Position numbers and translations under genes: made by a program. 34,563 bases of DNA from Alteromonadaceae bacterium (GTDB taxonomy: Bacteria; Pseudomonadota; Gammaproteobacteria; Enterobacterales; Alteromonadaceae). The notes below the pieces were generated by a model. It was not told the origin of the DNA. It did no database searches and saw nothing but the letters and a program-made list of their open reading frames with translations. Positions within the stretch are counted from its first letter, which is position 1. Every line of letters starts with the position of its first letter. This document shows positions 11,841-34,477 of the stretch, piece by piece. The DNA lies in the NCBI GenBank assembly GCA_015487235.1, contig WFQC01000032.1, positions 1 through 34,563 of the forward strand, in the 5' to 3' direction.

Positions 11841-11859
11841 GATAATGATAATGTCAAAC
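11841..11859 (+). promoter_or_regulatory. Fur-box-like sequence
   Basis: GATAATGATAATGTCAAAC at 11841-11859 contains two perfect GATAAT hexamers and matches 14 of 19 positions of the classical Fur consensus GATAATGATAATCATTATC. The third, inverted hexamer is poor. Its location between two operons encoding haem proteins makes iron control plausible, but a weak third hexamer in AT-rich DNA can arise by chance. Confidence 0.35.
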
Positions 11860-11931
11860 AGTAATAGTTTTTATTTGACCTTATGATAAAAATCTGTTGC
11901 TCTTTAATGGTAAAATAAAGTGCGTTAATTG

Positions 11932-11954
11932 TTTGATAAGTGATATTTATCAAA
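11932..11954 (+). promoter_or_regulatory. Perfect 8-bp inverted repeat before the ribosome-binding site
   Basis: TTTGATAA (11932-11939) and TTATCAAA (11947-11954) are exact inverted repeats separated by 7 bases. They end 7 bp before the AGGGA ribosome-binding site (11962-11966) of the HzsA-related gene. The element could be an operator or, if transcribed, an AU-rich 5'-leader hairpin. The half-sites TTGAT/ATCAA recall FNR/CRP-type sites, but the spacing is too wide for those. Confidence 0.5.
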
Positions 11955-11975
11955 TAGATGTCAGGGAATGGTGAC

Positions 11976-14663: not shown

Positions 14664-14671
14664 CGATCCTT

Positions 14672-16047: not shown

Positions 16048-16069
16048 ACGCCACATTTTATAGGACATA

Positions 16070-16609: not shown

Positions 16610-16611
16610 TT

Positions 16612-20639: not shown

Positions 20640-23600
20640 TGATATTTAATGCCTCTTTTATCAAAAAACTGACGATTCTTTTATTTGTAGCAGTATTTTT
20701 ATCAGGCTGTTTATCGACCACTGAAAAAGCTACACCACCTAAGCGTGCGACATTAGCTGAACTTGCCCAACAACCCGCTAACTTATCCTTATCGCCACTA
20801 GCGTTAAGCCAAGCTGAACGTGCTAAAAAGTTAGCTATTTTATATCAATCTATTTTAACCCTTGAACCTGATGCAGAAATAAGAACCCAAATTGCTTATC
20901 GATTAGTACAAATTAATAGTGAGACGATTGAAAATAATTTATATGCTGAAGAAAACGAGCAACAATTCGCACAAGCTTTTCAGCAAAAACAACAGCAATT
21001 ATCAGCTTTAATTAATGATTATAAAGCCTTACTCAAGCGTTATCCGCATCGCGCTGAAAATGAGTCTATTCGTTATCATTTAGCAAAAGCACTAGCGTTA
21101 CAAGGAAAAATGGATGAAAGTTTAGCGCAAATGGAATTGTTATTGGCGCAATATCCTACAACTCAATATGCAGCTGAATTACACTTTCGCCGTGGTGAAA
21201 TTTATTATAACCAACAAGATTATTTAACGGCTTTAGCAGCCTATCAGGCCGTATTACAAGCGAAAAACAATAAGACTTACCAAATTAATAGTATGTATAT
21301 GCAAGGCTGGTCTTTATTTAAATTAAACCGTTTAACAGAAGCTGATCGCCACTTTATACAGCTACTTGACTTTATTCTCAGTGAAGAAAAAGTACAATTT
21401 TATGAAGAAGATTTCAGCTTTGCAAAAATTAACAAGCATTATCAAAATATTGCCAATGATGTACAGCGAGTCTTAAGTATATCGTTGAGCCAGCAAGCAC
21501 AATCAGCAAGCTTACTTAATTTAGTAAAATCACAACAGTCGTTACCTAACTTATATTTATATCAACATATTTTATTTCAAAATTTAGCCAACTTTTTGCT
21601 CAAAAATGAACTTAAATATGATGCAGAGCTTACCTATCAAGCCTATATTGCTTATCAGCCTTTAAGTTTATGGTCAGCACGTTTTTCAATTGCTTTGCTT
21701 GATTTATATCGTCAGCAAGGTAAAAACCGTGCTGCACAATTACTAAAACAACAGTATGTTCAACGCTATGGTTTAACAAGTGCCTTTTGGCAGCAAGCTC
21801 GTTATAAAAAATATCAACAAATTAACTTTACTCGCGCCCTATACGAAGAAGTATTACCGCATTTAATTGACTTTAGTTATCAACATAGCCGTTATTTATA
21901 TGCCGATGCGCAAAAATTACCAGCAGGAGAATCTCGCGTTAAAGCTTTTAGTCAAACTGCTCATTGGCTTGCGCTTTATTTAGAACATGCAAAATTAGCG
22001 CAAGCAAAAAATTATGTGAACAAGCTAAAATTGAGTCAAGGGCTGTTAGCTGATGAATTTTTGTATGCCGAGGCTTTATTTGAAGCACAGCAGTATCAAA
22101 AAGCGTTGGCCAATTATGAAATGATCGCTTATCAACAGGTGATCAGCCGTGCATTATTATCAGGAAAGTTAGTTTTTGATGAAAACTTTAATTTGCTTGG
22201 CCAACAAGAACCGCACCAGTTAACAGACGATAATTCAGGGCAGGTACGTTCGGCTTATCGTCACTCAGGAAAAATTAAAAATGCATCCATAACTACAGCA
22301 AGCAATGATCAAACACGAGATAAGATAAGCGCAAACGAAAAGCTGCAAAAAGAGGCGGCTTATGCTGCAACCTTAACGGTGCGCAAATTATTGGCGCAAA
22401 CCCCACAAGGCAAAAAACGCACGCATTTGTTGCAATTACGTACTCATTTAGATCAAGCCTTTATTGAATATTATCCGCAAGATCAGCGAGCTTTGAACTT
22501 AGCCATGCAAGCGGCTCAATATGCTTTTGATCATAAAGATCATCAGCGCGTTCATCTTTATAGTCAGTTTATTTTAAAGCACTATGGTGTTGAAAAACAT
22601 TTAATCGAAAACCTTCAGCAGTTGCAAAAAATGCTGAGTGCTATTAAAGCTAAAGTGAAAACCAATGCGAAAGCGCTTGAAAAAATACAATTTGCTAGCC
22701 AATTACAAGCCAATAGTTTATATCAACAAGGTCAATTTGCTAAGGCTGAGTTGGCGTATCAACTTGCTTTGCAATTTATTGATAAAAAAGATAAAAAGTA
22801 TAAAGCATTACGAGAGTTGATAGCCTCAAGTATTTATTTACAAGCACAAGCATTGAAAACTGAGCAACCTTTACTTGCCGTTAAACATTATTTGCGATTA
22901 GGCGAGCTTATTCCAGAGTCAAGTTATCGACTTAATGCAGAATTTGATGCCGCTAACTTATTATTAGCACAAGAAAAATGGCAACAAGCCATTGATACAT
23001 TACGAGCTTTTCAGCAACGTTATCCTCAACATGAGTACAGCAGCTCAATTCCTGCAAAATTGGCTAATGCTTATGAAAAATTAGGTTCGTGGCAGTTAGC
23101 AGCAGAGCAATTATTGATTATTTATCAAAACCAAAAACAAACTGAGCTTAAACGAGAAGCACTCTATAGTGCGGCTGATTATTTTCTTAAAGCGGGTAAT
23201 CTTACTAAGGCTATTACCACATTTAGAACGTATGCTCACACCTACCCAGAGCCGTTTGCCATTGCTCAAGAAGTCCGTTTTAAAATGAGTGAGTTCTATC
23301 GCCAAACCAAAGAGCCCAATAAACGTTTTTATTGGTATCGCAAGCTGATCAAATATCATGACTTACAAAGTAAAAAAGTGGATGAGGGTACTTTACAACG
23401 TTCACTCTATTTAACCTCGTATGCAGCTTTAGAACTTGGTATGGCGCATCAAACGACTTTTAAAGCCATTAAATTAAACATTCCTTTGAAGAAAAGTTTA
23501 CAGCGTAAACAAAAAGCGATGAAACGAGCGATTGCTTATTATCAGCGCGTACTCACCAATGAACTAGCGGCATTTGTACCACACGCGACTTATAACTTAG

Positions 23601-23878
23601 CGCAAATGTATCGACAACTTGCGCGTGATGTTATGCAATCACAGAGACCTAAAGGTTTAGATGAACTTGCCCTTGAAGAATATGAGCTGTTACTTGAAGA
23701 AATTGCTTATCCTTTTGAGGAAAAAGCGATTGAAATTCACACCAGTAATGCCCAACGTGCATGGCAAGATATTTACGATCCTTGGATCGCAAAAAGCTTT
23801 GCCGCTTTAGCACAATTAGAGCCCGCTCAATATAATAGACAGGAGAAACCTATCCATGCAGTTCAATGGTTACATTAA
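20639..23878 (+). CDS. Large TPR lipoprotein
   Basis: A 1079-aa lipoprotein: hydrophobic signal and lipobox LSGC (C24). TPR-like repeats are clear around residues 140-250 (YHLAKALALQGKMDESLAQM, FRRGEIYYNQQDYLTALAAY) and again in the C-terminal half (SLYQQGQFAKAELAYQLALQ, EFDAANLLLAQEKWQQAIDT, AADYFLKAGNLTKAITTFRT), a tol-pal-system/BamD-like arrangement. GGAGG lies just before the ATG. The size and TPR content recall the TPR components of the Myxococcus Glt/Nfs systems, though one-to-one homology is not claimed. Probably anchored to the outer membrane facing the periplasm and acting as a scaffold. It overlaps the next gene by 23 bp. Confidence 0.75.
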   Translation: MIFNASFIKKLTILLFVAVFLSGCLSTTEKATPPKRATLAELAQQPANLSLSPLALSQAERAKKLAILYQSILTLEPDAEIRTQIAYRLVQINSETIENNLYAEENEQQFAQAFQQKQQQLSALINDYKALLKRYPHRAENESIRYHLAKALALQGKMDESLAQMELLLAQYPTTQYAAELHFRRGEIYYNQQDYLTALAAYQAVLQAKNNKTYQINSMYMQGWSLFKLNRLTEADRHFIQLLDFILSEEKVQFYEEDFSFAKINKHYQNIANDVQRVLSISLSQQAQSASLLNLVKSQQSLPNLYLYQHILFQNLANFLLKNELKYDAELTYQAYIAYQPLSLWSARFSIALLDLYRQQGKNRAAQLLKQQYVQRYGLTSAFWQQARYKKYQQINFTRALYEEVLPHLIDFSYQHSRYLYADAQKLPAGESRVKAFSQTAHWLALYLEHAKLAQAKNYVNKLKLSQGLLADEFLYAEALFEAQQYQKALANYEMIAYQQVISRALLSGKLVFDENFNLLGQQEPHQLTDDNSGQVRSAYRHSGKIKNASITTASNDQTRDKISANEKLQKEAAYAATLTVRKLLAQTPQGKKRTHLLQLRTHLDQAFIEYYPQDQRALNLAMQAAQYAFDHKDHQRVHLYSQFILKHYGVEKHLIENLQQLQKMLSAIKAKVKTNAKALEKIQFASQLQANSLYQQGQFAKAELAYQLALQFIDKKDKKYKALRELIASSIYLQAQALKTEQPLLAVKHYLRLGELIPESSYRLNAEFDAANLLLAQEKWQQAIDTLRAFQQRYPQHEYSSSIPAKLANAYEKLGSWQLAAEQLLIIYQNQKQTELKREALYSAADYFLKAGNLTKAITTFRTYAHTYPEPFAIAQEVRFKMSEFYRQTKEPNKRFYWYRKLIKYHDLQSKKVDEGTLQRSLYLTSYAALELGMAHQTTFKAIKLNIPLKKSLQRKQKAMKRAIAYYQRVLTNELAAFVPHATYNLAQMYRQLARDVMQSQRPKGLDELALEEYELLLEEIAYPFEEKAIEIHTSNAQRAWQDIYDPWIAKSFAALAQLEPAQYNRQEKPIHAVQWLH

Positions 23879-24674
23879 ATCTTGTTATTTTACCCTTAAA
23901 CTAGGGATTGGTATGAGCGTATTTATGTTGTTGGCCAGTTGTGTAACACCGGTTGAACGTGATGATGAAACTGCGTCGAAAACCCTTAAAAATATCAGTG
24001 GTGATATTGTTGATATGGTCAATACGACAACAACAGAGGTTCAACAAAAACGCCAAACGCTTAATGCGAGTGCACATAAAAACCTATACTTAGCGCAACA
24101 ACAAAGCCGCTTGGCGCAAATACCTCAAGCGTTAAGCACCAAGTATCAACAGGCGGTTGTCTTAATACAAAACAAAGCTTATAAACGCGCCAATCTACTT
24201 TTAGATGAAGTAATTAAACAGGCACCTAATTTATCGGGTAGTTATGTAAATAAAGCCGTTATTGCATACAACGAAAACCACTTATCTGATGCTGAAAAGT
24301 GGCTAGATAAAGCAATTAAAACCAATGCTTTAAACCCATACGCTTATAATTTTAAAGGGCAATTACAACGCTTAAATGGTCATTTTGCGAAGGCAGAGCA
24401 AAGCTATCAACAAGCCCTTGCAAATTGGAATGATTACCCCGATGCACACCTAAATTTAGCTATTTTACTTGAACTGTATCGAGGTCAGTTATTGCAAGCT
24501 AGGCAACATTATCAAGCTTATTTAACCTTAAATCCTCACGATAAAAAAGTGACAGCTTATCTTGCAGGCTTAGAGATCAAAATAAAACGGGCGGGTTTAA
24601 CGCTGCCTGAAGAAAAACATCAACCTGCCGTTCAGTTAGAACAAAAGAGTGAGAAAAATCATGCGGTTAATTAA
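23856..24674 (+). CDS. TPR lipoprotein
   Basis: A 272-aa lipoprotein with lipobox LASC (C29). At least three TPR units are readable in the middle: KYQQAVVLIQNKAYKRANLL, AYNENHLSDAEKWLDKAIKT, FKGQLQRLNGHFAKAEQSYQ, then PDAHLNLAIL. The ATG at 23856 lies inside the previous gene, with AGGAG eight bases upstream, so translation should be coupled. Like its neighbours it probably works in the periplasm as an adaptor for the ExbB/ExbD/TonB-like motor encoded just downstream. Confidence 0.78.
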   Translation: MQFNGYIKSCYFTLKLGIGMSVFMLLASCVTPVERDDETASKTLKNISGDIVDMVNTTTTEVQQKRQTLNASAHKNLYLAQQQSRLAQIPQALSTKYQQAVVLIQNKAYKRANLLLDEVIKQAPNLSGSYVNKAVIAYNENHLSDAEKWLDKAIKTNALNPYAYNFKGQLQRLNGHFAKAEQSYQQALANWNDYPDAHLNLAILLELYRGQLLQARQHYQAYLTLNPHDKKVTAYLAGLEIKIKRAGLTLPEEKHQPAVQLEQKSEKNHAVN

Positions 24675-25005
24675 CACTGTTTTAAAATTGTTATTGGCGG
24701 CATTACTTTTGGGCATAAACACCATGCCAGTGTTTGCTCAAGCCGACAAGACGTTATCAAAAACTAAGACGACAAAATCAGCTCCTGTGATGATTGAAAG
24801 CCAAGTGAAAGGTTCACAAGAGCAGCCTAATGTTATTTATGTTATGCCATGGCAGGGAATTTCACAGCCCGTCGTTATTCAAGATAGTCGTTATGACGTT
24901 GTTTTACCTAAATTTAAACCAATAAACCCAAAAACGTTTAGGCAACAACTTAATCAATATTATCAACAACAAACATTAAACCATAACAATAAAGATCAAG
25001 ATTAA
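24661..25005 (+). CDS. Small periplasmic protein of unknown function
   Basis: About 114 aa from the ATG at 24661; a GTG at 24649 is also in frame, but the shorter form gives a normal signal peptide (MRLINTVLKLLLAALLLGIN, cleavage near VFAQ-AD). The mature part is short and basic with the distinctive segment EQPNVIYVMPWQG followed by QPVVIQDSRYDVVLPKF. I do not recognise a named family. It overlaps the TPR gene by 14 bp and precedes the ExbB homologue by 24 bp, so it likely belongs to the same complex, perhaps as a linker to the motor. Confidence 0.6.
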   Translation: MRLINTVLKLLLAALLLGINTMPVFAQADKTLSKTKTTKSAPVMIESQVKGSQEQPNVIYVMPWQGISQPVVIQDSRYDVVLPKFKPINPKTFRQQLNQYYQQQTLNHNNKDQD

Positions 25006-25029
25006 TTTTTAACCGAGAGGGACACAACC

Positions 25030-25680
25030 ATGAGTTTTTTTGACAGTATTATTGCCTTTTTACAAAATGGCGGACCATTTATTTTTCCTATTGCATTAGT
25101 ACTTGTATTAGGTTTGGCTATAACACTTGAGCGCTGGCTTTACTTAAATTCGGCACTACGCACTAACCGTAAAGCATTAGCCTTATTACAAACTGATTTA
25201 AAAAAGGGTGATATTAACGCCATTATGCAGCATGCAAAAAGTCACTCAGCGCCTGTGCTTGATGTTTTGCAAGCGGGCATTGCACGTTTGTCAACGGTTA
25301 AACGTCGTGAAGACGTAGAATACGCCATGGAAGAAACTATTATGGAGTATATGCTAAGGCTCGAAAAACGTACGCCATTTTTAGCAACCTTGGCAAATAT
25401 TGCCACCTTACTCGGTTTATTAGGCACTATTATGGGCTTGATCGCTGCTTTTTCTGCGGTAGCAAGCGCCGATCCGGCCGAAAAAGCCAATTTACTTTCT
25501 TCAAGTATTTCTGTTGCCATGAACACCACGGCTTTTGGTTTGATCACTGCTATTCCACTTATTTTATTTCACACCAGTTTAATGAGTAAAACGGCAGCGA
25601 TTGTCGACTCATTAGAAATGGCTGGCATAAAATTGCTTAACTCGCTTTCTTTTGGGCAACAAGAAGAAAACCGAGGCTAA
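25030..25680 (+). CDS. ExbB/TolQ/MotA-family proton channel subunit
   Basis: A 216-aa inner-membrane protein with three TM segments: about 16-36, 117-140 (ANIATLLGLLGTIMGLIAAF) and 160-182 (VAMNTTAFGLITAIPLILFH). The glycine-rich second and Thr-containing third helices are the channel-lining signatures of the family. In these complexes a pentamer of this subunit surrounds a dimer of ExbD-like subunits and converts proton flow into movement. GAGAGGGAC precedes the ATG. The subunits downstream show it belongs to a dedicated system rather than to housekeeping Tol-Pal or TonB. Confidence 0.92.
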   Translation: MSFFDSIIAFLQNGGPFIFPIALVLVLGLAITLERWLYLNSALRTNRKALALLQTDLKKGDINAIMQHAKSHSAPVLDVLQAGIARLSTVKRREDVEYAMEETIMEYMLRLEKRTPFLATLANIATLLGLLGTIMGLIAAFSAVASADPAEKANLLSSSISVAMNTTAFGLITAIPLILFHTSLMSKTAAIVDSLEMAGIKLLNSLSFGQQEENRG

Positions 25681-25684
25681 GGTT

Positions 25685-26227
25685 ATGAGACGCCATCGCC
25701 GTATTAAAAATCAGCAAGAAGCCGAGCTTGATATCACCTCATTTATGAATTTGATGATCGTGCTAGTGCCAGTGCTTTTATTAAGTCTAGTTTTCTCACA
25801 GGTGCGTATTTTAAATTTACAACTTCCCTTGAGTGTTGACGAACAAGATCAACAACAAGATAAACCGCCTAAAATATTAGAGCTGGTGATCACCGAACAC
25901 GCCTTAACGCTTAATTATCCCAGTGGTATTTTATTAAAAAGCTTTGCGAAAACAGAACAGGGTTATGACTTTGCATTGTTGTCTAACTATTTACAAGACT
26001 TAAAATTAACTTTTCAGCAGCAAAATATTGATAAAAAAGATATTTTAATTCTGCTTAGCCCCAATGTCGATTATCAAACCTTAGTCTCAGCCATGGACAC
26101 TGTTCGTTCATTTAAAGCGGTTGTCGCTGCTAACTTAATTGATGCGGAGCTATTTCCTTTAATTTCACTCGGTGATGCACCCGAGGTAGAAAATGCAGTA
26201 GTTAATAGCCAAGGAGAGCAACCATGA
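25685..26227 (+). CDS. ExbD/TolR-family subunit with Asn at the proton-site position
   Basis: A 180-aa protein from the ATG at 25685. A longer TTG-start frame from 25652 overlaps the ExbB gene, but GAGG upstream and the short basic cytoplasmic N-terminus support 25685. One TM segment (about 19-38) is followed by a periplasmic domain. Aligned by eye with ExbD (ITPFIDVMLVLL), the segment ITSFMNLMIVLV places N22 where the essential Asp normally stands. D16 lies nearby on the cytoplasmic side. The change may make this subunit non-protonatable, with the second ExbD-like subunit carrying the active Asp. Confidence 0.88.
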   Translation: MRRHRRIKNQQEAELDITSFMNLMIVLVPVLLLSLVFSQVRILNLQLPLSVDEQDQQQDKPPKILELVITEHALTLNYPSGILLKSFAKTEQGYDFALLSNYLQDLKLTFQQQNIDKKDILILLSPNVDYQTLVSAMDTVRSFKAVVAANLIDAELFPLISLGDAPEVENAVVNSQGEQP

Positions 26228-26751
26228 AGCAATCAGCACGCGCAAAACGATTAGCTAGGCATCATAAACGCTTTAATAATTCAGCTAAACTCAATCTTGT
26301 ATCCCTAATGGATATTTTTACAATTTTGGTTTTTTTTCTTATCGTTAATCAATCCGAAGTGAGAGCATTACAAACCAGTAAAGATATTAGCTTACCGGTT
26401 TCTATCGCCGATGAATTGCCTGATGAAAATGTTTTGATCAGTATTTTAAATAATACTGTAATTATTCAAGATCGTGCTGTTTGGCAACAACAAGAAGCGA
26501 TTAATAACCTTGATGAAAGCAATAGCGAACCACTGATCAATGCTATTACGAATGAATTAAATTATTTAGCTCAAAAACGTCCACAGTTAACTGATATGGA
26601 AAAAGAACGCGGGCGTGCCGTTACGATTATGGGTGACTCATCCATTCCTTATAAAGTACTAAAACAAATTATGGCCGCTTGTGCAGAAAGTAATTATCGC
26701 AATATTTCTTTAGCGGTAAAACAAGTTGCTAGAAAGCAAGAAGGAGAGTAG
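26224..26751 (+). CDS. ExbD/TolR-family subunit retaining the conserved Asp
   Basis: A 175-aa protein with a basic cytoplasmic N-terminus, one TM segment (about 24-43) and a periplasmic domain. The motif NLVSLMDIFTILVFFLIV keeps the proton-carrying Asp (D30). The ATG overlaps the previous stop (ATGA, 4 bp) and is preceded by AGGAGAG, so the two ExbD-like proteins should be made in similar amounts, consistent with a heterodimer. The Myxococcus Agl motor likewise pairs one TolQ-like with two TolR-like subunits. Confidence 0.9.
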   Translation: MKQSARAKRLARHHKRFNNSAKLNLVSLMDIFTILVFFLIVNQSEVRALQTSKDISLPVSIADELPDENVLISILNNTVIIQDRAVWQQQEAINNLDESNSEPLINAITNELNYLAQKRPQLTDMEKERGRAVTIMGDSSIPYKVLKQIMAACAESNYRNISLAVKQVARKQEGE

Positions 26752-26754
26752 ACA

Positions 26755-27741
26755 ATGACAACGGCTACCTTACCTGCTCATATTCGTTTTCGTTCGCAAC
26801 ATAGTTTAAAAGCGCTAAATAATTTATTTTTACCGAGCGAGCAAGATAAAAAGTTTACCCGTATTTTAAGCATTTTGTTTGTTCTTTATCTTGTGATAGC
26901 GTTCACTGTACCTTTCTTTGAACCGGTTGAAGTACCGCGAAAAGAGAAAGAAAAGTTACCTGTACAACTGGCTAAAATCATTTTAAAAGAAAAGAAGCTA
27001 CCGCCACCTGAAAAGAAAAAAGTTATAGAAAAAAAGCCTGAAAAAAAAGAAATCAATAAAAAAGAAAAAGCGGTAGTTGAGAAAAAAACTAAACCACTTA
27101 AGCCATTACCGTTAAAAAAATTACGCGAAAAAGCGCGTGAAAAAGCAAAAAAATCAGGGCTTGCAGCCATGAAAGATGAACTTTTTTCAATGCGAGAAGT
27201 GGTTGATATTAAACCGACAGCGGTAAAAAAACTTAATAAAAACCAGCAAGTAGAAGCGAGAGTTAAACGTAAATTACTTGCGGCGCAAGCCAGTAAACAG
27301 AGTCAAACGTTAGGAGCGGCTAGTACCACACAAACCGTTGTTAGCGACCAATTAAGTACCCGCAATACCCAACAAGTACGTTTATCGGAAGAAGAAATTA
27401 GCGCTACTGAAGATACGTTAGTCGCTGAAAGTTTGGCAGAGCAGCAATCAGGTACCCGTTCTGAAATGTCACTTCGTCGCACCTTAGAAGCGCATAAAGC
27501 CAGATTGTATGCCTTATATAATAGAGCATTACGTAAAGATCCACTTTTACGGGGTAAAGTATTATTTGAAATAGAAATACAACCTAGCGGCAAGGTAAGC
27601 GCTGTTAAGATAAAAAGCAGCGAATTGAATAATGCTAAATTAGAAAGGCGTTTGATGTTGGTGTTAAAGTCTATCGAATTTGCACAAAAAGATGTGGCTG
27701 TTACTACCACTATTTGGGCAATAGACTTTATTCCGAGCTAA
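26755..27741 (+). CDS. TonB/AgmX-like energy-transducing protein
   Basis: A 328-aa protein. A single TM segment at about residues 41-62 (ILSILFVLYLVIAFTVPFFE) is followed by a Pro/Lys/Glu-rich stretch (about 70-135) like the periplasm-spanning spacer of TonB or TolA. The C-terminal domain (about 235-328: SLRRTLEAHKARLYALYNRA, GKVLFEIEIQPSGKVSAVKI) matches the AgmX/PglI-type C-terminal domain, which ends the GltJ/AgmX and GltG proteins of Myxococcus. It closes the motor operon 3 bp after the second ExbD gene (AAGGAGAG before the ATG). It probably passes force from the ExbB/D channel to the TPR/outer-membrane parts. Confidence 0.84.
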   Translation: MTTATLPAHIRFRSQHSLKALNNLFLPSEQDKKFTRILSILFVLYLVIAFTVPFFEPVEVPRKEKEKLPVQLAKIILKEKKLPPPEKKKVIEKKPEKKEINKKEKAVVEKKTKPLKPLPLKKLREKAREKAKKSGLAAMKDELFSMREVVDIKPTAVKKLNKNQQVEARVKRKLLAAQASKQSQTLGAASTTQTVVSDQLSTRNTQQVRLSEEEISATEDTLVAESLAEQQSGTRSEMSLRRTLEAHKARLYALYNRALRKDPLLRGKVLFEIEIQPSGKVSAVKIKSSELNNAKLERRLMLVLKSIEFAQKDVAVTTTIWAIDFIPS

Positions 27742-27798
27742 CGTGTTTTTTATAATTTGTCTTAGCAAAAAGAATGCGCCTAAGCTCACCTAACTAAG

Positions 27799-27828
27799 AT
27801 TGAGCGTGGATTGAGCGAGCATTATAAT
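27799..27828 (+). promoter_or_regulatory. Sigma-70 promoter with 11-bp tandem repeat over the -35
   Basis: A -35 TTGAGC (27800-27805), a 17-bp spacer and a perfect -10 TATAAT (27823-27828) form a near-ideal promoter for the response regulator beginning at 27883. ATTGAGCG occurs twice, at 27799-27806 and 27810-27817, with an 11-bp period. This fits head-to-tail binding of an OmpR-family dimer; because one copy covers the -35, autoregulation by activation or repression is possible. Confidence 0.68.
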
Positions 27829-27882: not shown

Positions 27883-28539
27883 ATGAGAATTTTATTAGTA
27901 GAAGATGATTTACCTTTAGCTCAAGGCTTACAAATATCGCTACGTCATGAAGGTTTTGTTGTTGATCATGTCAGTTGTGGTAAAGGTGCTCTAGCGGCAT
28001 TGTCTTATCCTGATCATGATATGGCAATTCTTGATTTAGGTTTACCCGATATCGATGGTTTAAAAGTTTTAGAGCAAGTTAGAAATAAAAAACTGTCATT
28101 GCCTATTATTATTTTAACGGCCAGAGATACTATTGATGAAAAAGTACAAGGGTTAGATTTAGGGGCCGATGACTATCTAGTAAAACCTTTTGAATTAAGT
28201 GAGCTTATTGCTCGTTTACGGGTTATTGAAAGACGCTTAGGTACTGCCAATAGTGCCATTATTAAGATTAAACAGGTACAAATGGACACTGCTGCTCATA
28301 AGGTAAAACTTGATCAACAAGACATCACCCTGTCTAAAAAAGAATATATGGTACTGAAAACCTTAATGGAAAATGCAGGTAGAATTCAGTCTCGTGAACA
28401 AATAGAGTCGCGCTTATACGAGTGGGGAGAAGAAATTGCCAGTAACGCGGTAGAAGTACATATTTCTAATTTACGGAAGAAGTTACCCGAGCAATTTATT
28501 CAAACAATACGAGGTGTGGGTTATACCGTTAATGTATAG
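27883..28539 (+). CDS. OmpR-family response regulator (QseB/PmrA-like)
   Basis: A 218-aa regulator from the ATG at 27883. A longer frame begins at TTG 27811, but that codon lies in the promoter repeat, and the receiver fold starts exactly at MRILLVEDD. Receiver residues: D8/D9 region, phosphoacceptor D51 (AILDLGLPDIDG), T79 and K101 (LGADDYLVKPF). The winged-helix domain has VEVHISNLRKKLPEQFIQTI and ends RGVGYTV. It is 37 bp upstream of its kinase and heads an operon with cupredoxin, FTR1-like and outer-membrane genes, which are its likely targets. Confidence 0.88.
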   Translation: MRILLVEDDLPLAQGLQISLRHEGFVVDHVSCGKGALAALSYPDHDMAILDLGLPDIDGLKVLEQVRNKKLSLPIIILTARDTIDEKVQGLDLGADDYLVKPFELSELIARLRVIERRLGTANSAIIKIKQVQMDTAAHKVKLDQQDITLSKKEYMVLKTLMENAGRIQSREQIESRLYEWGEEIASNAVEVHISNLRKKLPEQFIQTIRGVGYTVNV

Positions 28540-28576
28540 TTTTACATAGTTTACTTTAACTGGGAATACAGTTTAT

Positions 28577-29899
28577 ATGTCGATTCGTCGCTACTTGGTA
28601 TTAATACTCATTTCAATTATTACCCTTATTACCTTTATTGCGGCGATTCAAGGTTATAAGGCAAGTATGAAAAAGGCATCAGACTTGTTTGATGCGCAGC
28701 TGCATTCTGTGGCATCAACCATTATTGCCTTAGAAGCCCACCAACCATTAATTAACGTAACAGATAAAGCGGCGTTAGCTTTTCAAATTTGGCGCAACAA
28801 GCAATTACTTTTAGCCACCAGTAATACTCCAACAGAAGCCATTGCGCCTTTTAAACAAGGTTTTAGTGAGAATAACTTTGATGGTATTCGTTGGCGTGTT
28901 TACACCAAAAAATCGCCTATTGATAATCGTTGGGTTATGGTTGCTCAACCGATTAAACCGCGTTTTGAGCTTGCTGAAAATGTGATATTATCGGCTGTTA
29001 TCCCTATTGTTCTGGCCATTCCTTTATTAATCCTTATTATTTCAGTAGTCGTTGGTCGAGGATTAAAACCATTAACATTATTAACTAAACAGCTTACCAA
29101 GAAAAAGGTAAATGATTTAAGCAAAATAAAAGTTAAACAATCGAGTGAAGAGTTAGTACCAGTTATAGAAACACTTAATCACTTATTTCAACAGCTTGAG
29201 TCAGCGTTTGAACGTGAGAAACGTTTCGCTGCTGATGCGGCTCATGAACTGAGAACACCTTTAAGTGTATTAAAAATTAATAGTCATAACCTACAACTTG
29301 AATTAGGCAATGAAAACCCCGCCATTGATAACCTTGTGGCAAGTGTAGATCGTATGGCTCATGTTATTGACCAAATTTTATTGCTTAATAAAACCAATCC
29401 TGAACAATTTAGTGCTGATTTTTCCACCATTAATTTAACAGCTAATTGCCAACAAATTATTGCGCAGCTTTACCCTGAAATAAATGCGAGACAACAACAA
29501 ATAGAGTTACACGCATCAGAAGCTTATATTGCTGGTAATGATTTTGCTATTGCTACCTTATTACAAAACTTGATCAGTAATGCCAGTAAATATGCTCCTG
29601 AGCAAGGACGTATTCTTGTGACCATTGAGAAAAAATCATCAGCTGTAACACTAATTGTTGAAGATTCAGGTAAAGGAATTGATGAAAGTGAATTATCTAA
29701 AGTGTTTGATCGCTTTTACCGAGTAGGCGGCGATCGTCATAACCCTCAAATTACTGGTTGTGGGTTAGGCTTAGCTATTGTAAAGCACATAGTGCAGTTG
29801 CATAATGCCAAAATTACCCTAGCAAAATCACCCAAATTACAAGGTTTAATGGTTACTGTTGTGTTTTCTGGTGCTGAACAGGATAGTGTTAATGTTTAA
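28577..29899 (+). CDS. Sensor histidine kinase (QseC/PmrB-like)
   Basis: A 440-aa inner-membrane kinase with TM1 about residues 6-25, a periplasmic sensor of about 110 residues (QseC-type N-terminal domain, with DGIRWRVYTKKSPIDNRWVM), TM2 about 138-158, HAMP, then HisKA with AAHELRTPLS and H223. ATPase boxes: NLISNASKYAPEQG, VEDSGKGI, FDRFYRVGGD, GCGLGLAIVKHI. The 3' end overlaps the cupredoxin gene by 8 bp, so sensor and putative metal-handling genes are translationally linked. A metal or envelope signal is likely but not shown. Confidence 0.88.
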   Translation: MSIRRYLVLILISIITLITFIAAIQGYKASMKKASDLFDAQLHSVASTIIALEAHQPLINVTDKAALAFQIWRNKQLLLATSNTPTEAIAPFKQGFSENNFDGIRWRVYTKKSPIDNRWVMVAQPIKPRFELAENVILSAVIPIVLAIPLLILIISVVVGRGLKPLTLLTKQLTKKKVNDLSKIKVKQSSEELVPVIETLNHLFQQLESAFEREKRFAADAAHELRTPLSVLKINSHNLQLELGNENPAIDNLVASVDRMAHVIDQILLLNKTNPEQFSADFSTINLTANCQQIIAQLYPEINARQQQIELHASEAYIAGNDFAIATLLQNLISNASKYAPEQGRILVTIEKKSSAVTLIVEDSGKGIDESELSKVFDRFYRVGGDRHNPQITGCGLGLAIVKHIVQLHNAKITLAKSPKLQGLMVTVVFSGAEQDSVNV

Positions 29900-30269
29900 A
29901 TGGAAGGTGAATATAACCAGCTGTTTATTATTATTTTCTTGTGCGGTGTTTGCTCAACGACCAGAATTTGTATTAGAAATCAAAGATCATTTATTTTACC
30001 CTGCAGAAATTCATATACCTAAAAATAAGAAAGTTAAATTAGTTATCTACAATTACGATGCAACCCCTGAAGAGTTTGATAGTTTTGACTTAAACCGAGA
30101 AAAGGTTATTTTTCCACACCGTAAATCCATTATTTTTATCGGCCCTTTGCCCGAAGGACGATACAGTTTTTTTGGTGAATATCATCCCAATACTGCCAAA
30201 GGTGTAGTGATTGTTGATGATACTACTACCGTTAATCAACCCTTAGAGGAGTCATCTCATGTTGATTAA
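29892..30269 (+). CDS. Cupredoxin-like periplasmic protein
   Basis: A 125-aa exported protein. The ATG at 29892 (AGGA nine bases upstream) is preferred over the TTG at 29859. Signal peptide to about VFAQ-RPEF. The mature beta-sandwich has HLFYPAEIHIPKNKKVKLVI, EEFDSFDLNREKVI and EGRYSFFGEYHPNTAKGVVI, the pattern of cupredoxin-domain proteins found beside FTR1-type permeases. The usual Cys copper ligand is absent; His in GEYHP and other residues could bind metal. It overlaps the kinase by 8 bp and the membrane protein by 11 bp. Confidence 0.8.
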   Translation: MFKWKVNITSCLLLFSCAVFAQRPEFVLEIKDHLFYPAEIHIPKNKKVKLVIYNYDATPEEFDSFDLNREKVIFPHRKSIIFIGPLPEGRYSFFGEYHPNTAKGVVIVDDTTTVNQPLEESSHVD

Positions 30270-31044
30270 TACGGTAATATTATTGTTACGCGATGGCTTA
30301 CCTATTGTTTTTATGCTGGTATTACTACTGAGCAGTATGAAAAATGCTCATTATTCATACCAGTGGTTAATTAAAGCAGTATCGATTGCTATGTTGGTAA
30401 CCGCCAGTTTATTAATTTTTATTGATACTATTGCGCATTGGTATGACGGTATGGGCATTGAGCTATTATTTTCTATTGGTTTTATTGGTGTTTATTTTCT
30501 TATTGTTGTGCATTTGTTTGCTAAGCCAAACACTACACCGTTGTGGTTAAAACCAGCTAGTGCTATGGGTATTTTTGTTTTAGTTGTTAGCGTAAATACG
30601 ATTAATTTTTTAGTGTATTTAACAGGCTTTTGGTCGCAAACAGAACTGCTTGCCTCTATTTTAATTGGTATGTTACTGGGAGTAGGTATTTGCGTTAGTG
30701 TCGGTATTTTATTGTATTTTATTTTGCAGCTTAACCAGCAAAAAGTACAATTTGGCATTAATAACATACTATTACTACTATTTGGTTGTGGTCAATTAAC
30801 ACAAGCCATTCATTTACTGTTGCAAATGGATTTACTTCCTGCAGAAGCGGCTATTTGGGACAGTAGCTTTTTAGTTGATGAAAATTCAGAGCTAGGTTAC
30901 TTCTTTACTGCCTTAGTTGGTTATGATGCTAGACCAACTAGCTTACATATTTTTTTATACGTGCTCGCCTTGTTATTACCGATAGCATTTTATTACTGGC
31001 GAAGAAATCATCCGAATATAACTACTCATCAGGAGCATAACTGA
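30259..31044 (+). CDS. FTR1-like multi-spanning membrane protein lacking REGLE-type motifs
   Basis: A 261-aa inner-membrane protein with about seven TM segments. The layout follows FTR1/EfeU: an N-terminal helix starting INTVILLLRDGLPIVFMLVL, a mid-protein helix with GMGIELLF, a late periplasmic loop (DLLPAEAAIWDSSFLVDENS) and GYDARPTSLHIFLY before the last helix. The two REGLE-type iron motifs are not intact: the first reads RDGLP and the second has no Arg-Glu pair at all. It is therefore either a divergent transporter for another cargo or a non-transporting electron or sensory partner of the cupredoxin. It ends with a one-base overlap with the next gene. Confidence 0.7.
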   Translation: MLINTVILLLRDGLPIVFMLVLLLSSMKNAHYSYQWLIKAVSIAMLVTASLLIFIDTIAHWYDGMGIELLFSIGFIGVYFLIVVHLFAKPNTTPLWLKPASAMGIFVLVVSVNTINFLVYLTGFWSQTELLASILIGMLLGVGICVSVGILLYFILQLNQQKVQFGINNILLLLFGCGQLTQAIHLLLQMDLLPAEAAIWDSSFLVDENSELGYFFTALVGYDARPTSLHIFLYVLALLLPIAFYYWRRNHPNITTHQEHN

Positions 31045-31745
31045 TGCGCTTATTTATTAGCTTTATTTTATGTGTGATCAGTATTGCTAAAGTGCAAGCT
31101 GATAGTTTTGTGGTTGATAAGGTTTATCACCCTTATGTGTTACCTAATGAACAAGAATTTGAGTGGCGTTTGTTTTCTCGTCAAACTGATGAAGGCAACA
31201 AGTTGGCTCAGCATATTGCTTATGGCTTTGCTTTGTCTGAAAGGGTTATGTTTGAAGCCTATATTTTGGGTGAGCGCAACGAAAATGACTCAGATGATTA
31301 TGGCTTGAAATCTTATGAAGCGGAAGTGCGTTGGATGTTAACCGAACAAGGCGAGTTATGGGCTGACTGGGGCGCGCTATTTGAATTAGAAAAACAGCAT
31401 GACAGCAATGATTGGGAAGCTACGGCTGCGCTTTTATTTGAAAAAGAAATTGGCAAAACCAGTCTTACCATGAATTTTTTTATGGTGTATGAATGGGGGG
31501 ATAATAGCCGAGAAAGCATGAAAAACGAATTTCGTTTACAATATCGTTATCGTTTTTTACCTCAACTACAACCAGCCATTGAATTGTATACCGGTCATAA
31601 TTACTTGGGCATAGGCCCAGCCTTTATGGGAATACAGCGCTTTGATCGGCAAAAACAATTAAAGTGGGAAATGGGCTTTATTGTTGGTTTTAATGGTAAT
31701 AATAAAGACAATGCATTACGTGTTGCGATTGAATATGAGTTTTAA
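31044..31745 (+). CDS. Outer-membrane beta-barrel-like protein of unknown function
   Basis: A 233-aa protein with a signal peptide (MRLFISFILCVISIAKVQA-DS). The mature sequence is rich in alternating aromatic/polar strands (LSERVMFEAYILGERNENDS, SLTMNFFMVYEWGDNSRESM, FRLQYRYRFLPQLQPAIELY) and ends in VAIEYEF with a terminal Phe, typical of outer-membrane barrels. The ATG is the TGATG overlap with the FTR1-like gene. With the cupredoxin and FTR1-like proteins it would complete an inner membrane-periplasm-outer membrane set. Its stop is interlocked with that of the convergent AraC gene (4-bp overlap). Confidence 0.66.
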   Translation: MRLFISFILCVISIAKVQADSFVVDKVYHPYVLPNEQEFEWRLFSRQTDEGNKLAQHIAYGFALSERVMFEAYILGERNENDSDDYGLKSYEAEVRWMLTEQGELWADWGALFELEKQHDSNDWEATAALLFEKEIGKTSLTMNFFMVYEWGDNSRESMKNEFRLQYRYRFLPQLQPAIELYTGHNYLGIGPAFMGIQRFDRQKQLKWEMGFIVGFNGNNKDNALRVAIEYEF

Positions 31746-32767
31746 CGTTCATTTTTATTGGTTGCTTGATAAGCTCTTGGGGTTTGTTGAGTGAGTTGTT
31801 TAAACCAACGATAAAAAGAACGAGGCTCTGCAAACCCTAATTGTTGGCTCACTGTATTTAATGTTACTGCCTTGTTTTTTAATAATATTTTTGCTTGTTC
31901 TAAGCGAACCTTATTTACTAATTGTTTAAAGTTCAGTTGGTGTGTTTTTAAACGGCGTTGCAAGGTTTTAGCACTGATATTAAGCTGTGCTGCAATATCT
32001 TCTTGGCTAATTTGCTGGTGGGTTAAGCCCTGTTTAATTAACAGCTCACATTGGCTCACAATGTCATTGTTTGTGAGGCTTTGTAATAACACCTGTGCAT
32101 GCTTTTCTAACGTGAGTCGTACATTTTTATCGCCTTTATTTAATGGCAAACTGAGTAAGTCTTGATGAAATACAATAGTGTTACTGGTTTGGTTAAATAA
32201 AATAGGGCAATTAAATAAGCGCTGATATTCGCGAGTTTGTTGTAAATCAGGCTGTTTCCTCGTTAATAATACCTTGACGGGTGAGCCTTGATTATTGGTG
32301 AGATAACGCGCAAAAGTTAGCCATGAAGCTAAGCAATTATCAACCATATGGCGACGTACTAAAGGATCAGGAAAACGACAATGCCAGCTAATGGTCAGCA
32401 ACTCATTGCATTGCGCAATATGGGTTACACCCATATCACCGACTAATTTTTCAAAGGGCTGTATTTTAGCAATAGCTTCACCTAAGGTTGCACAATTCAT
32501 TACAATATAACCAAGCACACTGTATGAACCCGGTTGCACATATTGTGCGGTATGCAAGCCAAATAAAGGATCTTTTGAGCACTTGAGTAATGCAGCTATA
32601 AGTTGTTGAAATGCCATTCCTGAAATATGTTGGCTATTATCAGCAAGCAGTGCTTTATCTAATGATAACTTAGTTAAAATGTTATCAATATCAATTTGTT
32701 GCGCTTCGGCTAATTGTAAATACTGTTTTACTGCCGGAATAGAAGCTTGTCCTAAATCTGTACTCAT
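31742..32767 (-). CDS. AraC-family transcriptional regulator (OruR/ArgR-type)
   Basis: A 341-aa regulator from the ATG at 32767. The open frame extends to 32953, but the extension has unlikely Cys-rich composition and would overlap the divergent flavoenzyme gene, so the shorter form is preferred and matches the family's usual 330-340 aa. The N-terminal half (SIPAVKQYLQLAEAQQIDID, VLGYIVMNCATLGEAI) is the arabinose-binding-like domain of OruR-type regulators. The C-terminal HTH domain has DIAAQLNISAKTLQRRL and LGFAEPRSFYRWFKQLTQ, then TPRAYQ. Divergent orientation suggests control of the flavoenzyme/glycerophosphate genes. Confidence 0.86.
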   Translation of the reverse strand: MSTDLGQASIPAVKQYLQLAEAQQIDIDNILTKLSLDKALLADNSQHISGMAFQQLIAALLKCSKDPLFGLHTAQYVQPGSYSVLGYIVMNCATLGEAIAKIQPFEKLVGDMGVTHIAQCNELLTISWHCRFPDPLVRRHMVDNCLASWLTFARYLTNNQGSPVKVLLTRKQPDLQQTREYQRLFNCPILFNQTSNTIVFHQDLLSLPLNKGDKNVRLTLEKHAQVLLQSLTNNDIVSQCELLIKQGLTHQQISQEDIAAQLNISAKTLQRRLKTHQLNFKQLVNKVRLEQAKILLKNKAVTLNTVSQQLGFAEPRSFYRWFKQLTQQTPRAYQATNKNER

Positions 32768-32887
32768 CTCTTGCGATCTATATTGCTTGTCCAGTTTTGT
32801 CACTATAACTGTCTTTTGCGGACATTTTGCCTTGTTCGTGGAGGTTTTACCATGCTTTATTATAAATAATAAGGGGTAAATTTTAAC

Positions 32888-34477
32888 ATGAGACGTTGGA
32901 ATGGTTGGGGAGACGAAAGTAAAAGTATGGCATTGCCGACAACGGCAGCACAATTTTTACAGCAAACGTTAGGGAAAGCAACGCCTTTAGTTGATATTAG
33001 TTTAGCTGAGATGTTAAAAAAAGTCCCTGAGAGTCGCTTACCTCAACACCCGCTAATTAGCACAGATAAAGAACAACGAGTTCGTCATGCTAAAGGGCAG
33101 TCTTTAGCTGATTGGTTAGCAATGCGTGGCGGCGATGTTAGTGTTTTTCCTGATGGTGTTGCTTTTCCTGAAAACCGACAAGACATTCAAACATTGCTAA
33201 AATTTGCACAACAACAGCAAATTATATTGATCCCCTACGGTGGCGGGACAAGTGTCGCTGGGCATATTAATCCGAAGGCATCAGATAAACCTATTTTAAC
33301 GGTTGATTTATCACGAATGAACCAATTGATTCACCTTGATAAACAAAGCCAAATAGCCACTTTTGAAGCTGGAACTCCAGGACCAATGGTTGAAGCTCAA
33401 TTAAGAGCACAGGGCTATACCTTAGGGCATTTTCCGCAGTCTTTCGAGTTATCTACAATTGGTGGTTGGGTTGCTAGCCGCTCTAGCGGCCAACAATCGT
33501 TACGTTATGGTCGTATAGAGCAGTTATTTGCTGGAGGCTCACTTGAAACCTTTAATGGCACCTTATCACTCCCTACGTTTCCTGCTTCTTCCGCCGGGCC
33601 TGACTTGAGAGAATTGTTATTAGGTTCAGAAGGGCGCTTTGGTATTATTAGCGAAGTAAAAGTTAGGGTGACTAAATTAGCCGAGCAAGAACAGTTTTAT
33701 GTTTATTTTTTCCCAAGTTGGCAACAAGCAAGTCGCTTTTGTCAACAAGCCGTACAAGCGCGTATTCCTTTATCGATGTTGCGAGTTAGCAACCCATTAG
33801 AAACGCAAACGCAATTAAAATTAGCGGGGCATGCGCAACAAATTGCTTGGCTTGAACGCTATTTAAGTTGGCGTGGTGCTAAAGCGCAAAAATGTATGCT
33901 CACACTCGGTATTACGGGGTCTGCTCAACAAGTTTCGGCGAGTAAAAAACAATTAAAGCCATTACTTAAGCAATACAGAGCGGTTTCTACGGGTACAAAG
34001 CTTGGTAAACGTTGGGCCGAAAATCGCTTTAAATTTCCTTATTTACGAGAAGCCTTATGGCAAAAAGGCGTGGTTGTAGACACCTTAGAAACTGCAACTG
34101 ATTGGGTTAATATGGATCGCTTATTAACTGAGGTTGAAAATGCACTTACGCAAACCTTAAGTACTAAAAAAGTACATGCTTTTACGCATATATCACATGT
34201 GTATGGTCAAGGTTGCAGCCTCTATACCACATATTTATTTACTGTTGATGCTAATTATCAAAGCACCTTTGAAAATTGGCAACGCCTTAAGCATGCCGCA
34301 AGTACTTGCATTGTTAATCATGGCGGCACTATTAGTCATCAACATGGTGTTGGTAAAGATCATGCGCCTTACTTATCGGTTGAAAAAGGAGAGCAAGGTA
34401 TGCAGGTATTAAAAGCGCTGTGCCAACACTTTGATCAGCAGAAACTACTTAATCCAAGTACCTTAATCGATGACTAA
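32888..34477 (+). CDS. Alkyl-dihydroxyacetonephosphate synthase-like FAD enzyme
   Basis: A 529-aa FAD-binding oxidoreductase. It opens with MRRWNGWGDE, a hallmark of the bacterial AGPS-like family. The FAD-binding domain shows YGGGTSVAGHINP, STIGGWVASRSSGQQSLRYG and LLLGSEGRFGIISEVKVRV. The cap/C-terminal domain has GKRWAENRFKFPYLREALWQ, VDTLETATDW and SHQHGVGKDHAPY. AGPS exchanges the acyl chain of acyl-DHAP for a fatty alcohol in ether-lipid synthesis. Here the central His of the eukaryotic SHHHG motif is Gln, so the exact reaction is uncertain. AAGGGG lies 11 bases before the ATG. It overlaps the next gene by 8 bp. Confidence 0.82.
   Translation: MRRWNGWGDESKSMALPTTAAQFLQQTLGKATPLVDISLAEMLKKVPESRLPQHPLISTDKEQRVRHAKGQSLADWLAMRGGDVSVFPDGVAFPENRQDIQTLLKFAQQQQIILIPYGGGTSVAGHINPKASDKPILTVDLSRMNQLIHLDKQSQIATFEAGTPGPMVEAQLRAQGYTLGHFPQSFELSTIGGWVASRSSGQQSLRYGRIEQLFAGGSLETFNGTLSLPTFPASSAGPDLRELLLGSEGRFGIISEVKVRVTKLAEQEQFYVYFFPSWQQASRFCQQAVQARIPLSMLRVSNPLETQTQLKLAGHAQQIAWLERYLSWRGAKAQKCMLTLGITGSAQQVSASKKQLKPLLKQYRAVSTGTKLGKRWAENRFKFPYLREALWQKGVVVDTLETATDWVNMDRLLTEVENALTQTLSTKKVHAFTHISHVYGQGCSLYTTYLFTVDANYQSTFENWQRLKHAASTCIVNHGGTISHQHGVGKDHAPYLSVEKGEQGMQVLKALCQHFDQQKLLNPSTLIDD

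What the first reader, a model, noticed from the sequence alone, without database searches (positions are those of the whole stretch)
28577..31745. FTR1-like protein without the iron motifs, with cupredoxin, barrel and its own sensor
The membrane protein keeps FTR1-like topology and C-terminal signatures, but the two REGLE-type motifs are absent (RDGLP in the first helix). All five genes from regulator to barrel are close or overlapping. This could be a divergent metal uptake or redox-sensing module spanning both membranes, not a standard EfeUOB system.
Basis: partly seen in the sequence, partly recalled or inferred. Interest (0 to 1): 0.6.

Follow-up and report, generated by a model that had tools for sequence, protein, structure and literature searches.

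The report
Iron permease lacking iron-binding motifs
A five-gene operon in marine bacteria keeps a relative of an iron-import protein that has lost both of its iron-carrying motifs, next to a small metal-binding protein, an outer-membrane-type protein and a signalling pair resembling a known iron sensor, which suggests that an importer may have been turned into part of a sensing system.

Summary
At 27883-31745 lie five tightly packed genes: response regulator, histidine kinase, FtrB-like cupredoxin, seven-helix FTR1 homologue, outer-membrane-type barrel. The FTR1 homologue aligns over its length with intact relatives (hhalign E 3e-43), but RDGLP replaces REXLE in helix 1 and VNTIN replaces REGxE in helix 4, and no other helix column is acidic in most relatives.

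It is not a one-off. In 54 of 54 sampled loci of one clade the five genes are found together and both motifs are broken (Pro at the second helix-1 Glu in 53); in 32 of 32 other loci both are intact. A tree of the other proteins gives the clade one origin. The permease, the least conserved part already in intact loci (40%), drops to 28% identity but is still selected (dN/dS about 0.1-0.4) and keeps an invariant periplasmic-side Glu.

The regulator is the most PmrA-like of its genome. In relatives, PmrA-type boxes precede this operon, eptA, glycosyltransferase and thioredoxin/flavinylation genes.

Best reading: an iron-uptake module converted into a non-conducting metal receptor or handler coupled to a PmrAB-like pair. 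Loss and conservation are shown; non-transport, the metal and signalling are inferred. New variant of a known kind.

The parts
27798..27817 (+). 11-base-spaced direct repeat GATTGAGCG / GATTGAGCG over the -35 of the best promoter-like site (27800-27828); candidate regulator site
   Evidence: seen first, then tested: 21 of 20000 dinucleotide shuffles give a 9/9 repeat at spacing 11, 11 of 5000 at spacing 10-12
27883..28539 (+). OmpR-family response regulator, highest PmrA score in its genome
28577..29899 (+). sensor histidine kinase, QseC/PmrB-like
29892..30269 (+). secreted FtrB/EfeO-type cupredoxin
   Evidence: Pfam PF13473 1.6e-27; PDB 8vuk FtrB 1.7e-14
30072..30185 (+). span of the FtrB metal-site equivalents E61, D63, E70, G95, E96, H98 (FtrB E84, E86, E93, D118, D119, H121)
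   Evidence: alignment, site counts, FtrB residue roles from PMC11966278
30259..31044 (+). FTR1-like seven-helix membrane protein without REXLE motifs
30289..30303 (+). helix-1 RDGLP in place of REXLE
30460..30462 (+). E68, Glu at the periplasmic end of the loop before helix 3, 54 of 54 clade members
30592..30606 (+). helix-4 VNTIN in place of REGxE
30877..30891 (+). D-E-N-S-E in the loop between helices 6 and 7 (E at the last position in 45 of 54 clade members, 0 of 32 others)
31044..31745 (+). outer-membrane barrel-type protein of no named family, signal-peptide-like start, C-terminal YEF

Best explanation
The operon encodes a PmrAB-like two-component pair with three envelope partners that descend from an iron-uptake module (cupredoxin + FTR1 permease + barrel). 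In this clade the FTR1 homologue has lost both Glu motifs of the permeation path and most likely no longer conducts iron. It keeps an invariant Glu and an acidic loop towards the periplasm, where the cupredoxin, which keeps its Fe-type carboxylate site, can deliver or sample metal. Most likely the barrel admits or presents metal, the cupredoxin binds (and perhaps oxidises) it, the FTR1-derived protein acts as receptor or scaffold in the inner membrane, and the kinase/regulator adjust genes for lipid A modification and periplasmic redox. Shown: homology, operon conservation, clade-wide loss, purifying selection, retained acids, PmrA-type boxes at the operon and at eptA/glycosyltransferase/TlpA genes in relatives. 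Inferred: no transport, iron as the metal, physical coupling to the kinase, direction of signalling.
For: Both motifs broken in 54 of 54 clade loci, intact in 32 of 32 others. One origin on an RR+HK+barrel tree, support 100; the deepest branch (L113, L133) still has RELLP and the ancestral cupredoxin Glu, so the loss looks stepwise. Mean pairwise identity of FTR 28.1% in the clade against 39.6% in ten intact five-gene loci, while the barrel goes the other way (56.8 against 42.0). By region the drop is largest in helix 2, helix 4 and cytoplasmic loop 1 and absent in helix 5. FTR dN/dS 0.12-0.38 in six close pairs with finite dS. E68 54 of 54; loop Glu 45 of 54. Cupredoxin site kept (E84 51, E86 as D 50, E93 53, D119 as E 52 of 54). 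Regulator and kinase genes beside it in all 54. PmrA-type boxes with up to 2 mismatches before the operon in 23 of 65 loci, 1.2 expected; an exact box before a ShlB-like gene and eptA in the window's own genome, and before GT2, TlpA and T_hemolysin genes in relatives. The genome holds a separate FTR1 with intact motifs.
Against: No experiment. 44 of 54 keep an acid at the first helix-1 Glu position and 13 of 54 an acid at the second helix-4 position, so some metal binding in the membrane may remain. The periplasmic parts are not better kept than the protein as a whole: pooled 51.7 to 39.3% identity, the helix 6-7 loop 62.0 to 42.3, so rapid evolution also fits a remnant. FTR was the least conserved part already in intact loci. 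The kinase has no conserved ExxE column (33 of 65 have any ExxE in the periplasmic stretch). The window's own promoter lacks the CTTAAG box (best 4 mismatches, p 0.81), as do most loci. Genomes without the module also hold boxes (9 of 20). In L062 and L104 the regulator's frame is shorter than in the others (180 and 173 residues), perhaps broken. The function of the intact relatives is itself untested.
Confidence: 0.45

Rival explanations
1. It is still a transporter. The helix-1 [RK]D pair, the conserved Pro kink, E68 and the loop acids form a changed pathway for iron or another cation; the pair of Glu motifs was replaced, not lost.
For: D or E at the first helix-1 position in 44 of 54, Pro at the fifth in 53 of 54: the new motif is itself conserved. 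Seven helices kept. Linked cupredoxin and barrel kept.
Against: Helix 4, which bears half of the path in FTR1, fell from 48 to 24% identity, helix 2 from 35 to 16; no new widely conserved acid in any helix.
Confidence: 0.25
2. The FTR1-like protein is a scaffold or a slowly decaying remnant; the cupredoxin and barrel carry the function with the two-component pair.
For: Lowest conservation of the five proteins, while the barrel is better conserved than in intact loci; cytoplasmic loops and the periplasmic loop all lost identity.
Against: Open frames of 243-315 residues in 54 of 54 loci; dN/dS 0.12-0.38; E68, Q189, G213 in 54 of 54.
Confidence: 0.2
3. A PmrAB/QseBC-like sensor of envelope damage or cationic peptides; metal has become irrelevant.
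For: Genes next to boxes include eptA, glycosyltransferases and genes that look like diacylglycerol kinase.
Against: The cupredoxin keeps its Fe-type carboxylates; a flavinylation cluster, a kind linked in print with iron reduction, is a recurrent neighbour and box target.
Confidence: 0.1

Closest known systems
FTR1/EfeU iron permeases (Pfam PF03239; yeast Ftr1)
   Same: Seven helices, profile homology over the whole length, acidic loop between helices 6 and 7
   Different: Both REXLE-type motifs absent; below curated cut-offs
FtrABCD (Brucella, Bordetella)
   Same: FtrB-like cupredoxin next to an FTR1 homologue
   Different: No P19 (FtrA) or polyferredoxin (FtrD) among the five proteins; barrel and two-component pair instead; FtrB D118 is G here
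EfeUOB
   Same: EfeU homologue and EfeO-type cupredoxin fold
   Different: No EfeO M75 domain or EfeB peroxidase among the five proteins
PmrAB (and ColRS/VgrRS) iron-sensing two-component systems
   Same: PmrA is the best NCBIfam model for the regulator; CTTAAG-N5-CTTAAG boxes in relatives; eptA and PMT_2-type glycosyltransferase operons next to boxes
   Different: Scores below the PmrA/PmrB cut-offs; no conserved ExxE in the kinase; three envelope partner genes in the operon
Intact cupredoxin-FTR1-barrel modules found here in other Gammaproteobacteria and in Hydrogenophaga (L063, barrel in two pieces)
   Same: Homologous cupredoxin, permease and barrel in the same order
   Different: REVLE/REGSE-type motifs intact; two-component pair adjacent in 12 of 32

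Membership tests
FTR1/EfeU iron permease | Homology and seven helices | tested here: met
   hhalign probability 100, E 3.1e-43; hydropathy
FTR1/EfeU iron permease | REXLE-type motif in helix 1 | tested here: not met
   RDGLP; 0 of 54 clade members
FTR1/EfeU iron permease | REXLE-type motif in helix 4 | tested here: not met
   VNTIN; 0 of 54 clade members carry both Glu
FTR1/EfeU iron permease | Acidic extracytoplasmic residues (yeast E89 and loop-6 DXXE, PMC11817551) | tested here: inconclusive
   E68 54 of 54, loop E211 45 of 54; column equivalence to yeast Ftr1 was not tested
FTR1/EfeU iron permease | Curated score cut-off | tested here: not met
   17.9 of 25.3; 38.1 of 255
FTR1/EfeU iron permease | Iron transport | not testable with these tools
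   needs an uptake assay
EfeUOB | EfeO and EfeB partners beside it | tested here: not met
   none among the five proteins or the eight neighbours scanned at 20639-27741 and 31742-34477; one small frame at 24649-25005 and the rest of the genome were not scanned
FtrABCD | FtrB-type cupredoxin | tested here: met
   8vuk 1.7e-14
FtrABCD | FtrA (P19) and FtrD (polyferredoxin) beside it | tested here: not met
   no such Pfam hit in the five proteins or the eight scanned neighbours
PmrAB | Regulator above the PmrA equivalog cut-off | tested here: not met
   230.5 bits of 330, but the best of 38 matches in the genome, next 196.1
PmrAB | PmrA-type boxes at own and lipid A genes | tested here: inconclusive
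   relatives 23 of 65 at the own operon; window genome: eptA operon yes, own operon no
PmrAB | Periplasmic ExxE iron site in the kinase | tested here: not met
   no conserved column; 33 of 65 have any ExxE; window has ELAE at the membrane edge

The most novel reading that the evidence does not exclude
In one marine bacterial family an FTR1 iron permease became a pseudo-permease: a non-conducting inner-membrane metal receptor, loaded by a ferroxidase-like cupredoxin and fed by a dedicated outer-membrane barrel, that tells a PmrAB-type kinase how much metal reaches the periplasm.
Probability: 0.27. Interest if true: 0.8.

Novelty: new variant of a known kind. Interest (0 to 1): 0.6.

Why it matters
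FTR1 is a textbook iron permease whose helix glutamates were found essential in yeast. A clade that kept the protein and its partners but dropped those residues is a natural separation of function: it asks what the rest of FTR1 and its cupredoxin do when transport is gone. If it senses, it would be a transporter-to-receptor conversion for a metal, and would tie iron handling to lipid A modification and protein flavinylation in a common group of marine bacteria. The intact sister modules give ready controls.

Tried and rejected
Considered and dropped. (1) Intact Glu motifs elsewhere in the helices: no other helix column is acidic in 60% or more of the clade. (2) Unrelated membrane family: profile alignment excludes it. 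(3) Pseudogene: open frames and purifying selection. (4) Only iron permease of the genome: no, a longer FTR1 protein (631 residues, with a CxxCH stretch seen by eye) with REGLE and REVFE lies on another contig. (5) The upstream ExbB/ExbD genes as part of the module: not beside it in the annotated loci L060-L063 or among the frames of L031; the other loci were not searched for them. (6) Kinase ExxE as the sensor: not a conserved column. (7) Classical copper site in the cupredoxin: the D118 equivalent is G in 54 of 54, the H121 equivalent is H in 18 of 54. (8) Structure prediction with two sequences each: mean pLDDT 37 (barrel) and 46 (FTR), not used, no fold search run. (9) Relatives of the barrel in viral contigs: none. 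(10) The pattern was mis-spaced by me, so its zero means nothing; one search asked another pattern (2 sites, one of them the window's). (11) T_hemolysin in the own genome: no match, but the control genomes were silent too, so absence is not shown.

Rows dropped before counts: L031 is taken as the same contig as L096 (equal contig length and equal scores) and left out of the 86-locus table. In the identity comparison one intact locus (L145) was left out because its barrel was called in a longer wrong start, hence 10 instead of 11. Three intact loci have no called cupredoxin and are not in the site counts (29 of 32). 49 of the 54 clade loci were drawn from barrel hits, so barrel presence there is by construction. 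Of the 184 family genomes with a hit, 48 were drawn, about one to four a genus. Some pieces end at contig ends (for example L153, L155, L171), so missing neighbours there are not evidence. The 12 genomes were mostly picked because their operon has a box; one search used others. dN/dS is a simple counting estimate and dS is near saturation in several pairs. On re-checking I lowered the best reading from 0.5 to 0.45 and the novel case from 0.3 to 0.27, and raised the scaffold rival from 0.15 to 0.2, because one search does not show the periplasmic parts to be better kept than average.
Full report
WHAT IS THERE. Five genes run on the + strand: response regulator 27883-28539, histidine kinase 28577-29899, cupredoxin 29892-30269, FTR1-like protein 30259-31044, barrel-type protein 31044-31745. 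The finding's coordinates leave out the regulator. The last four genes overlap by 8, 11 and 1 bases. Pfam gives Response_reg/Trans_reg_C, HisKA/HATPase, Cupredoxin_1 (1.6e-27) and a sub-threshold FTR1 hit (17.9 bits, cut-off 25.3); the barrel has no family. NCBIfam gives PmrA as best for the regulator, QseC and then PmrB for the kinase, all below cut-off, and EfeU far below cut-off (38.1 of 255) for the permease. Upstream lie TPR, ExbB and two ExbD genes plus a 328-residue protein without a Pfam hit that looks TonB-like by eye; downstream an AraC-type regulator on the other strand and an FAD-linked oxidase.

THE MISSING MOTIFS ARE REAL. The window protein was aligned with relatives from a class-wide sample (45 of 369 genomes with a match) and an order-wide sample (58 of 394), then with longer pieces and named records, 86 loci in all. 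The loci fall in two sets. In 32 of 86 helix 1 has E..E (REVLE and the like) and helix 4 has E..E (REGSE and the like). In 54 of 86 neither motif is whole: helix 1 mostly reads [RK]DxLP (Pro at the fifth position in 53, acid at the second in 44), helix 4 has Glu at its first Glu position in 1 and an acid at its second in 13. Profile-profile alignment of the two sets gives probability 100 and E 3.1e-43 and sets RDGLP on RETLE and VNTIN on REGAE. No other helix column is acidic in 60% or more of the 54. The window's genome has a second, longer FTR1 with intact motifs on another contig. In yeast Ftr1 the Glu residues of both motifs are required, as are E89 and a DXXE motif in the extracellular loop 6 (PMC11817551, passages read).

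ONE CLADE, ONE ORIGIN, STEPWISE. On a tree of regulator, kinase and barrel (65 five-gene loci, trait protein left out, quick search, SH-aLRT) the 54 loci are one side of a branch with support 100 and one change, 0 of 500 label shuffles as low. The tree alone cannot tell gain from loss; the intact state is taken as ancestral because it is that of the wider family. The deepest branch in the clade (L113, L133) still has RELLP and the ancestral Glu at the cupredoxin E86 site, so the second helix-1 Glu and the helix-4 motif probably went first, and the first Glu and the cupredoxin site changed later. The sampled loci of the window's family are all of the broken type; one locus from another family (L154) nests among them. 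The barrel is found in 184 of 395 genomes and 34 of 52 genera of the family. Named members are on plasmid records of Alteromonas macleodii, Pseudoalteromonas carrageenovora and P. xiamenensis, annotated 'FTR1 family iron permease' or 'iron transporter'.

CONSERVED YET CHANGED. All 54 loci hold the five genes (barrel by construction in 49; in L062 and L104 the regulator frame is short, 180 and 173 residues, and no regulator is annotated in L062). Of the 32 intact loci, 11 have the five genes, 15 have cupredoxin, permease and barrel without the pair in the piece read (five of them with permease and barrel fused, L153 at a contig end), and 6 are partial, one of these with the pair. Mean pairwise identity in the clade is 59.7 (regulator), 41.0 (kinase), 48.3 (cupredoxin), 28.1 (FTR) and 56.8 (barrel) percent, against 56.8, 43.6, 58.5, 39.6 and 42.0 in ten intact five-gene loci: permease and cupredoxin relaxed, barrel tightened; FTR was the lowest in both. 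By region, against the 11 intact five-gene loci, helix 4 fell from 48 to 24, helix 2 from 35 to 16 and cytoplasmic loop 1 from 30.5 to 10, while helix 5 (49 to 47) and helix 7 (24 to 22) held. The periplasmic parts pooled fell from 52 to 39 and the helix 6-7 loop from 62 to 42, about the average of the protein, which does not favour a receptor over a remnant. FTR dN/dS (simple counting) is 0.12-0.38 in the six clade pairs with finite dS. E68 is in 54 of 54; the loop between helices 6 and 7 has a Glu (45 of 54, 0 of 32 in intact loci) three residues after a D or E (53 of 54). The positive-inside count puts both on the periplasmic side. They resemble yeast E89 and DXXE, but I did not test the column match.

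THE CUPREDOXIN. It matches FtrB of Brucella (8vuk, 1.7e-14). In FtrB, E84, E86, E93 and D119 hold an Fe2+ mimic, and D118 and H121 are the copper residues (PMC11966278, passages read). In the clade: E84 kept in 51 of 54, E86 is D in 50, E93 kept in 53, D119 is E in 52; D118 is G in 54 and H121 is H in 18. Intact loci have E86 in 29 of 29, D118 as G in 23 and H121 as H in 8 of 29. So the Fe-type carboxylate site is kept, the copper site at best in part (the window has G and H).

THE SIGNALLING SIDE. The regulator has the highest PmrA score in its genome (230.5 bits; next 196.1; cut-off 330). Salmonella PmrA boxes are CTTAAG, five bases, XTTAAT (PMC3973317, passages read). Upstream of the module regulator, CTTAAG-N5-CTTAAG with up to two mismatches occurs in 23 of 65 loci (12 exact) against 1.2 (0 exact) expected from shuffles; 42 of 65, the window among them (best 4 mismatches), have none within 250 bases. 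The window has instead an 11-base-spaced 9/9 direct repeat, GATTGAGCG, across the -35 of the best promoter-like site (21 of 20000 shuffles, tested after it was seen). In 30 module-bearing genomes other than those there are 37 exact boxes in 22 genomes (reversed-pattern control 5); in 20 genomes without a barrel hit 9 boxes in 9 (control 2). Of 47 box loci read, the gene next to the box is the module regulator in 9, a TlpA-type thioredoxin like that of the DUF3570/ApbE cluster in 7, a GT2 glycosyltransferase in 4, T_hemolysin in 3, EptA in 1 and a barrel like the one before eptA in 2; 21 had none of these labels; none of the 9 loci from genomes without the module had one. In the window's own genome one exact box precedes a ShlB-like gene followed by EptA, a second lies between a TlpA-DUF3570-ApbE cluster and a divergent gene nearer to it, a third between genes that look by eye like ccmA and ccmF. 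PmrB and ColS sense Fe3+, ColS through a periplasmic ExxE (PMC4074579, passages read); here no such column is conserved (33 of 65 have any ExxE; the window has ELAE), which leaves room for a partner protein to do the sensing.

NEIGHBOURS. Two clusters recur beside the module within the pieces fetched: T_hemolysin-AMP ligase-haem-oxygenase-like oxidase-SDR-TPR (TPR gene in 22 of 54 broken and 7 of 11 intact loci) and TlpA-DUF3570-ApbE (DUF3570 in 14 of 54 and 1 of 11). The window has neither beside its operon. DUF3570 is an ApbE flavinylation substrate, and flavinylation clusters have been linked to iron reduction and uptake (PMC8238504, passages read). The window has ApbE at 5275-6270 and a DUF3570 protein at 16838-18001.

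READING. An iron-uptake-type module (cupredoxin, FTR1, barrel) is found with or without a PmrAB-like pair; in one clade that has the pair the permease then lost its conducting residues but kept its partners and its operon. The account I favour is a receptor or handler of periplasmic metal that informs, or is regulated with, a PmrA-type response of lipid A modification and periplasmic redox. Steps shown by sequence: homology, loss, selection, conservation, boxes in relatives. Steps inferred: non-transport, iron, contact with the kinase. Rivals: changed transporter, scaffold or remnant, pure envelope-stress sensor.

NOVELTY. Searches for FTR1 + cupredoxin + two-component, FTR1/cupredoxin/iron permease, Pseudoalteromonas + FTR1, REGLE/REXXE + EfeU, DASE + Ftr1p, EfeO-type cupredoxin/FTR1 family + PmrA/QseB and Alteromonas + iron permease + cupredoxin listed no paper whose title or abstract start describes this module; lists were capped at 10 to 40 papers, only open-licence papers are held, and of most hits I saw the listing alone. 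Two were checked by passages: the A. macleodii copper paper PMC8478169 concerns another cupredoxin cluster, and PMC7019866 names an iron permease and a cupredoxin only in figure legends.

Noticed in passing
L156 4392-5966, L157 2181-3752, L158 2061-3641, L162 2064-3620, L163 4435-5997: In five genomes the FTR1 permease and the barrel are one open frame of 518-526 residues. Between helix 7 and the barrel lies a signal-peptide-like stretch ending in an AxA-type site (4 of 5 pass the hydropathy threshold), so an inner-membrane permease and an outer-membrane protein may be made as one polyprotein and cut by signal peptidase.
   Followed up: partly
L060, L061, L062, L203: A T_hemolysin-AMP ligase-haem-oxygenase-like iron oxidase-SDR-TPR cluster is a recurrent neighbour of the module and a box target; it looks like a biosynthetic unit, not looked up in print.
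   Followed up: partly
window 5275-18001: ApbE (5275-6270), a TlpA-like thioredoxin by eye (16070-16609) and a DUF3570 protein (16838-18001) in the same window; a second such set with an exact PmrA-type box nearby lies on another contig of the genome (L194).
   Followed up: partly
window 20639-27741: Large TPR proteins followed by ExbB, two ExbD genes and a TonB-like protein without a Pfam hit, directly upstream of the operon.
   Followed up: no
L154: A broken-motif module in a genome of another family, nested among modules of the window's family, suggests horizontal transfer; named copies lie on plasmid records.
   Followed up: no
L195 5797-7413: A 538-residue ShlB-like outer-membrane protein sits between a PmrA-type box and EptA in the window's genome; a relative is next to a box in L228.
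   Followed up: no
L062 3818-4360 and L104 2142-2663: The module regulator's frame is short in these two loci (180 and 173 residues), a sequencing error or a real break.
   Followed up: no
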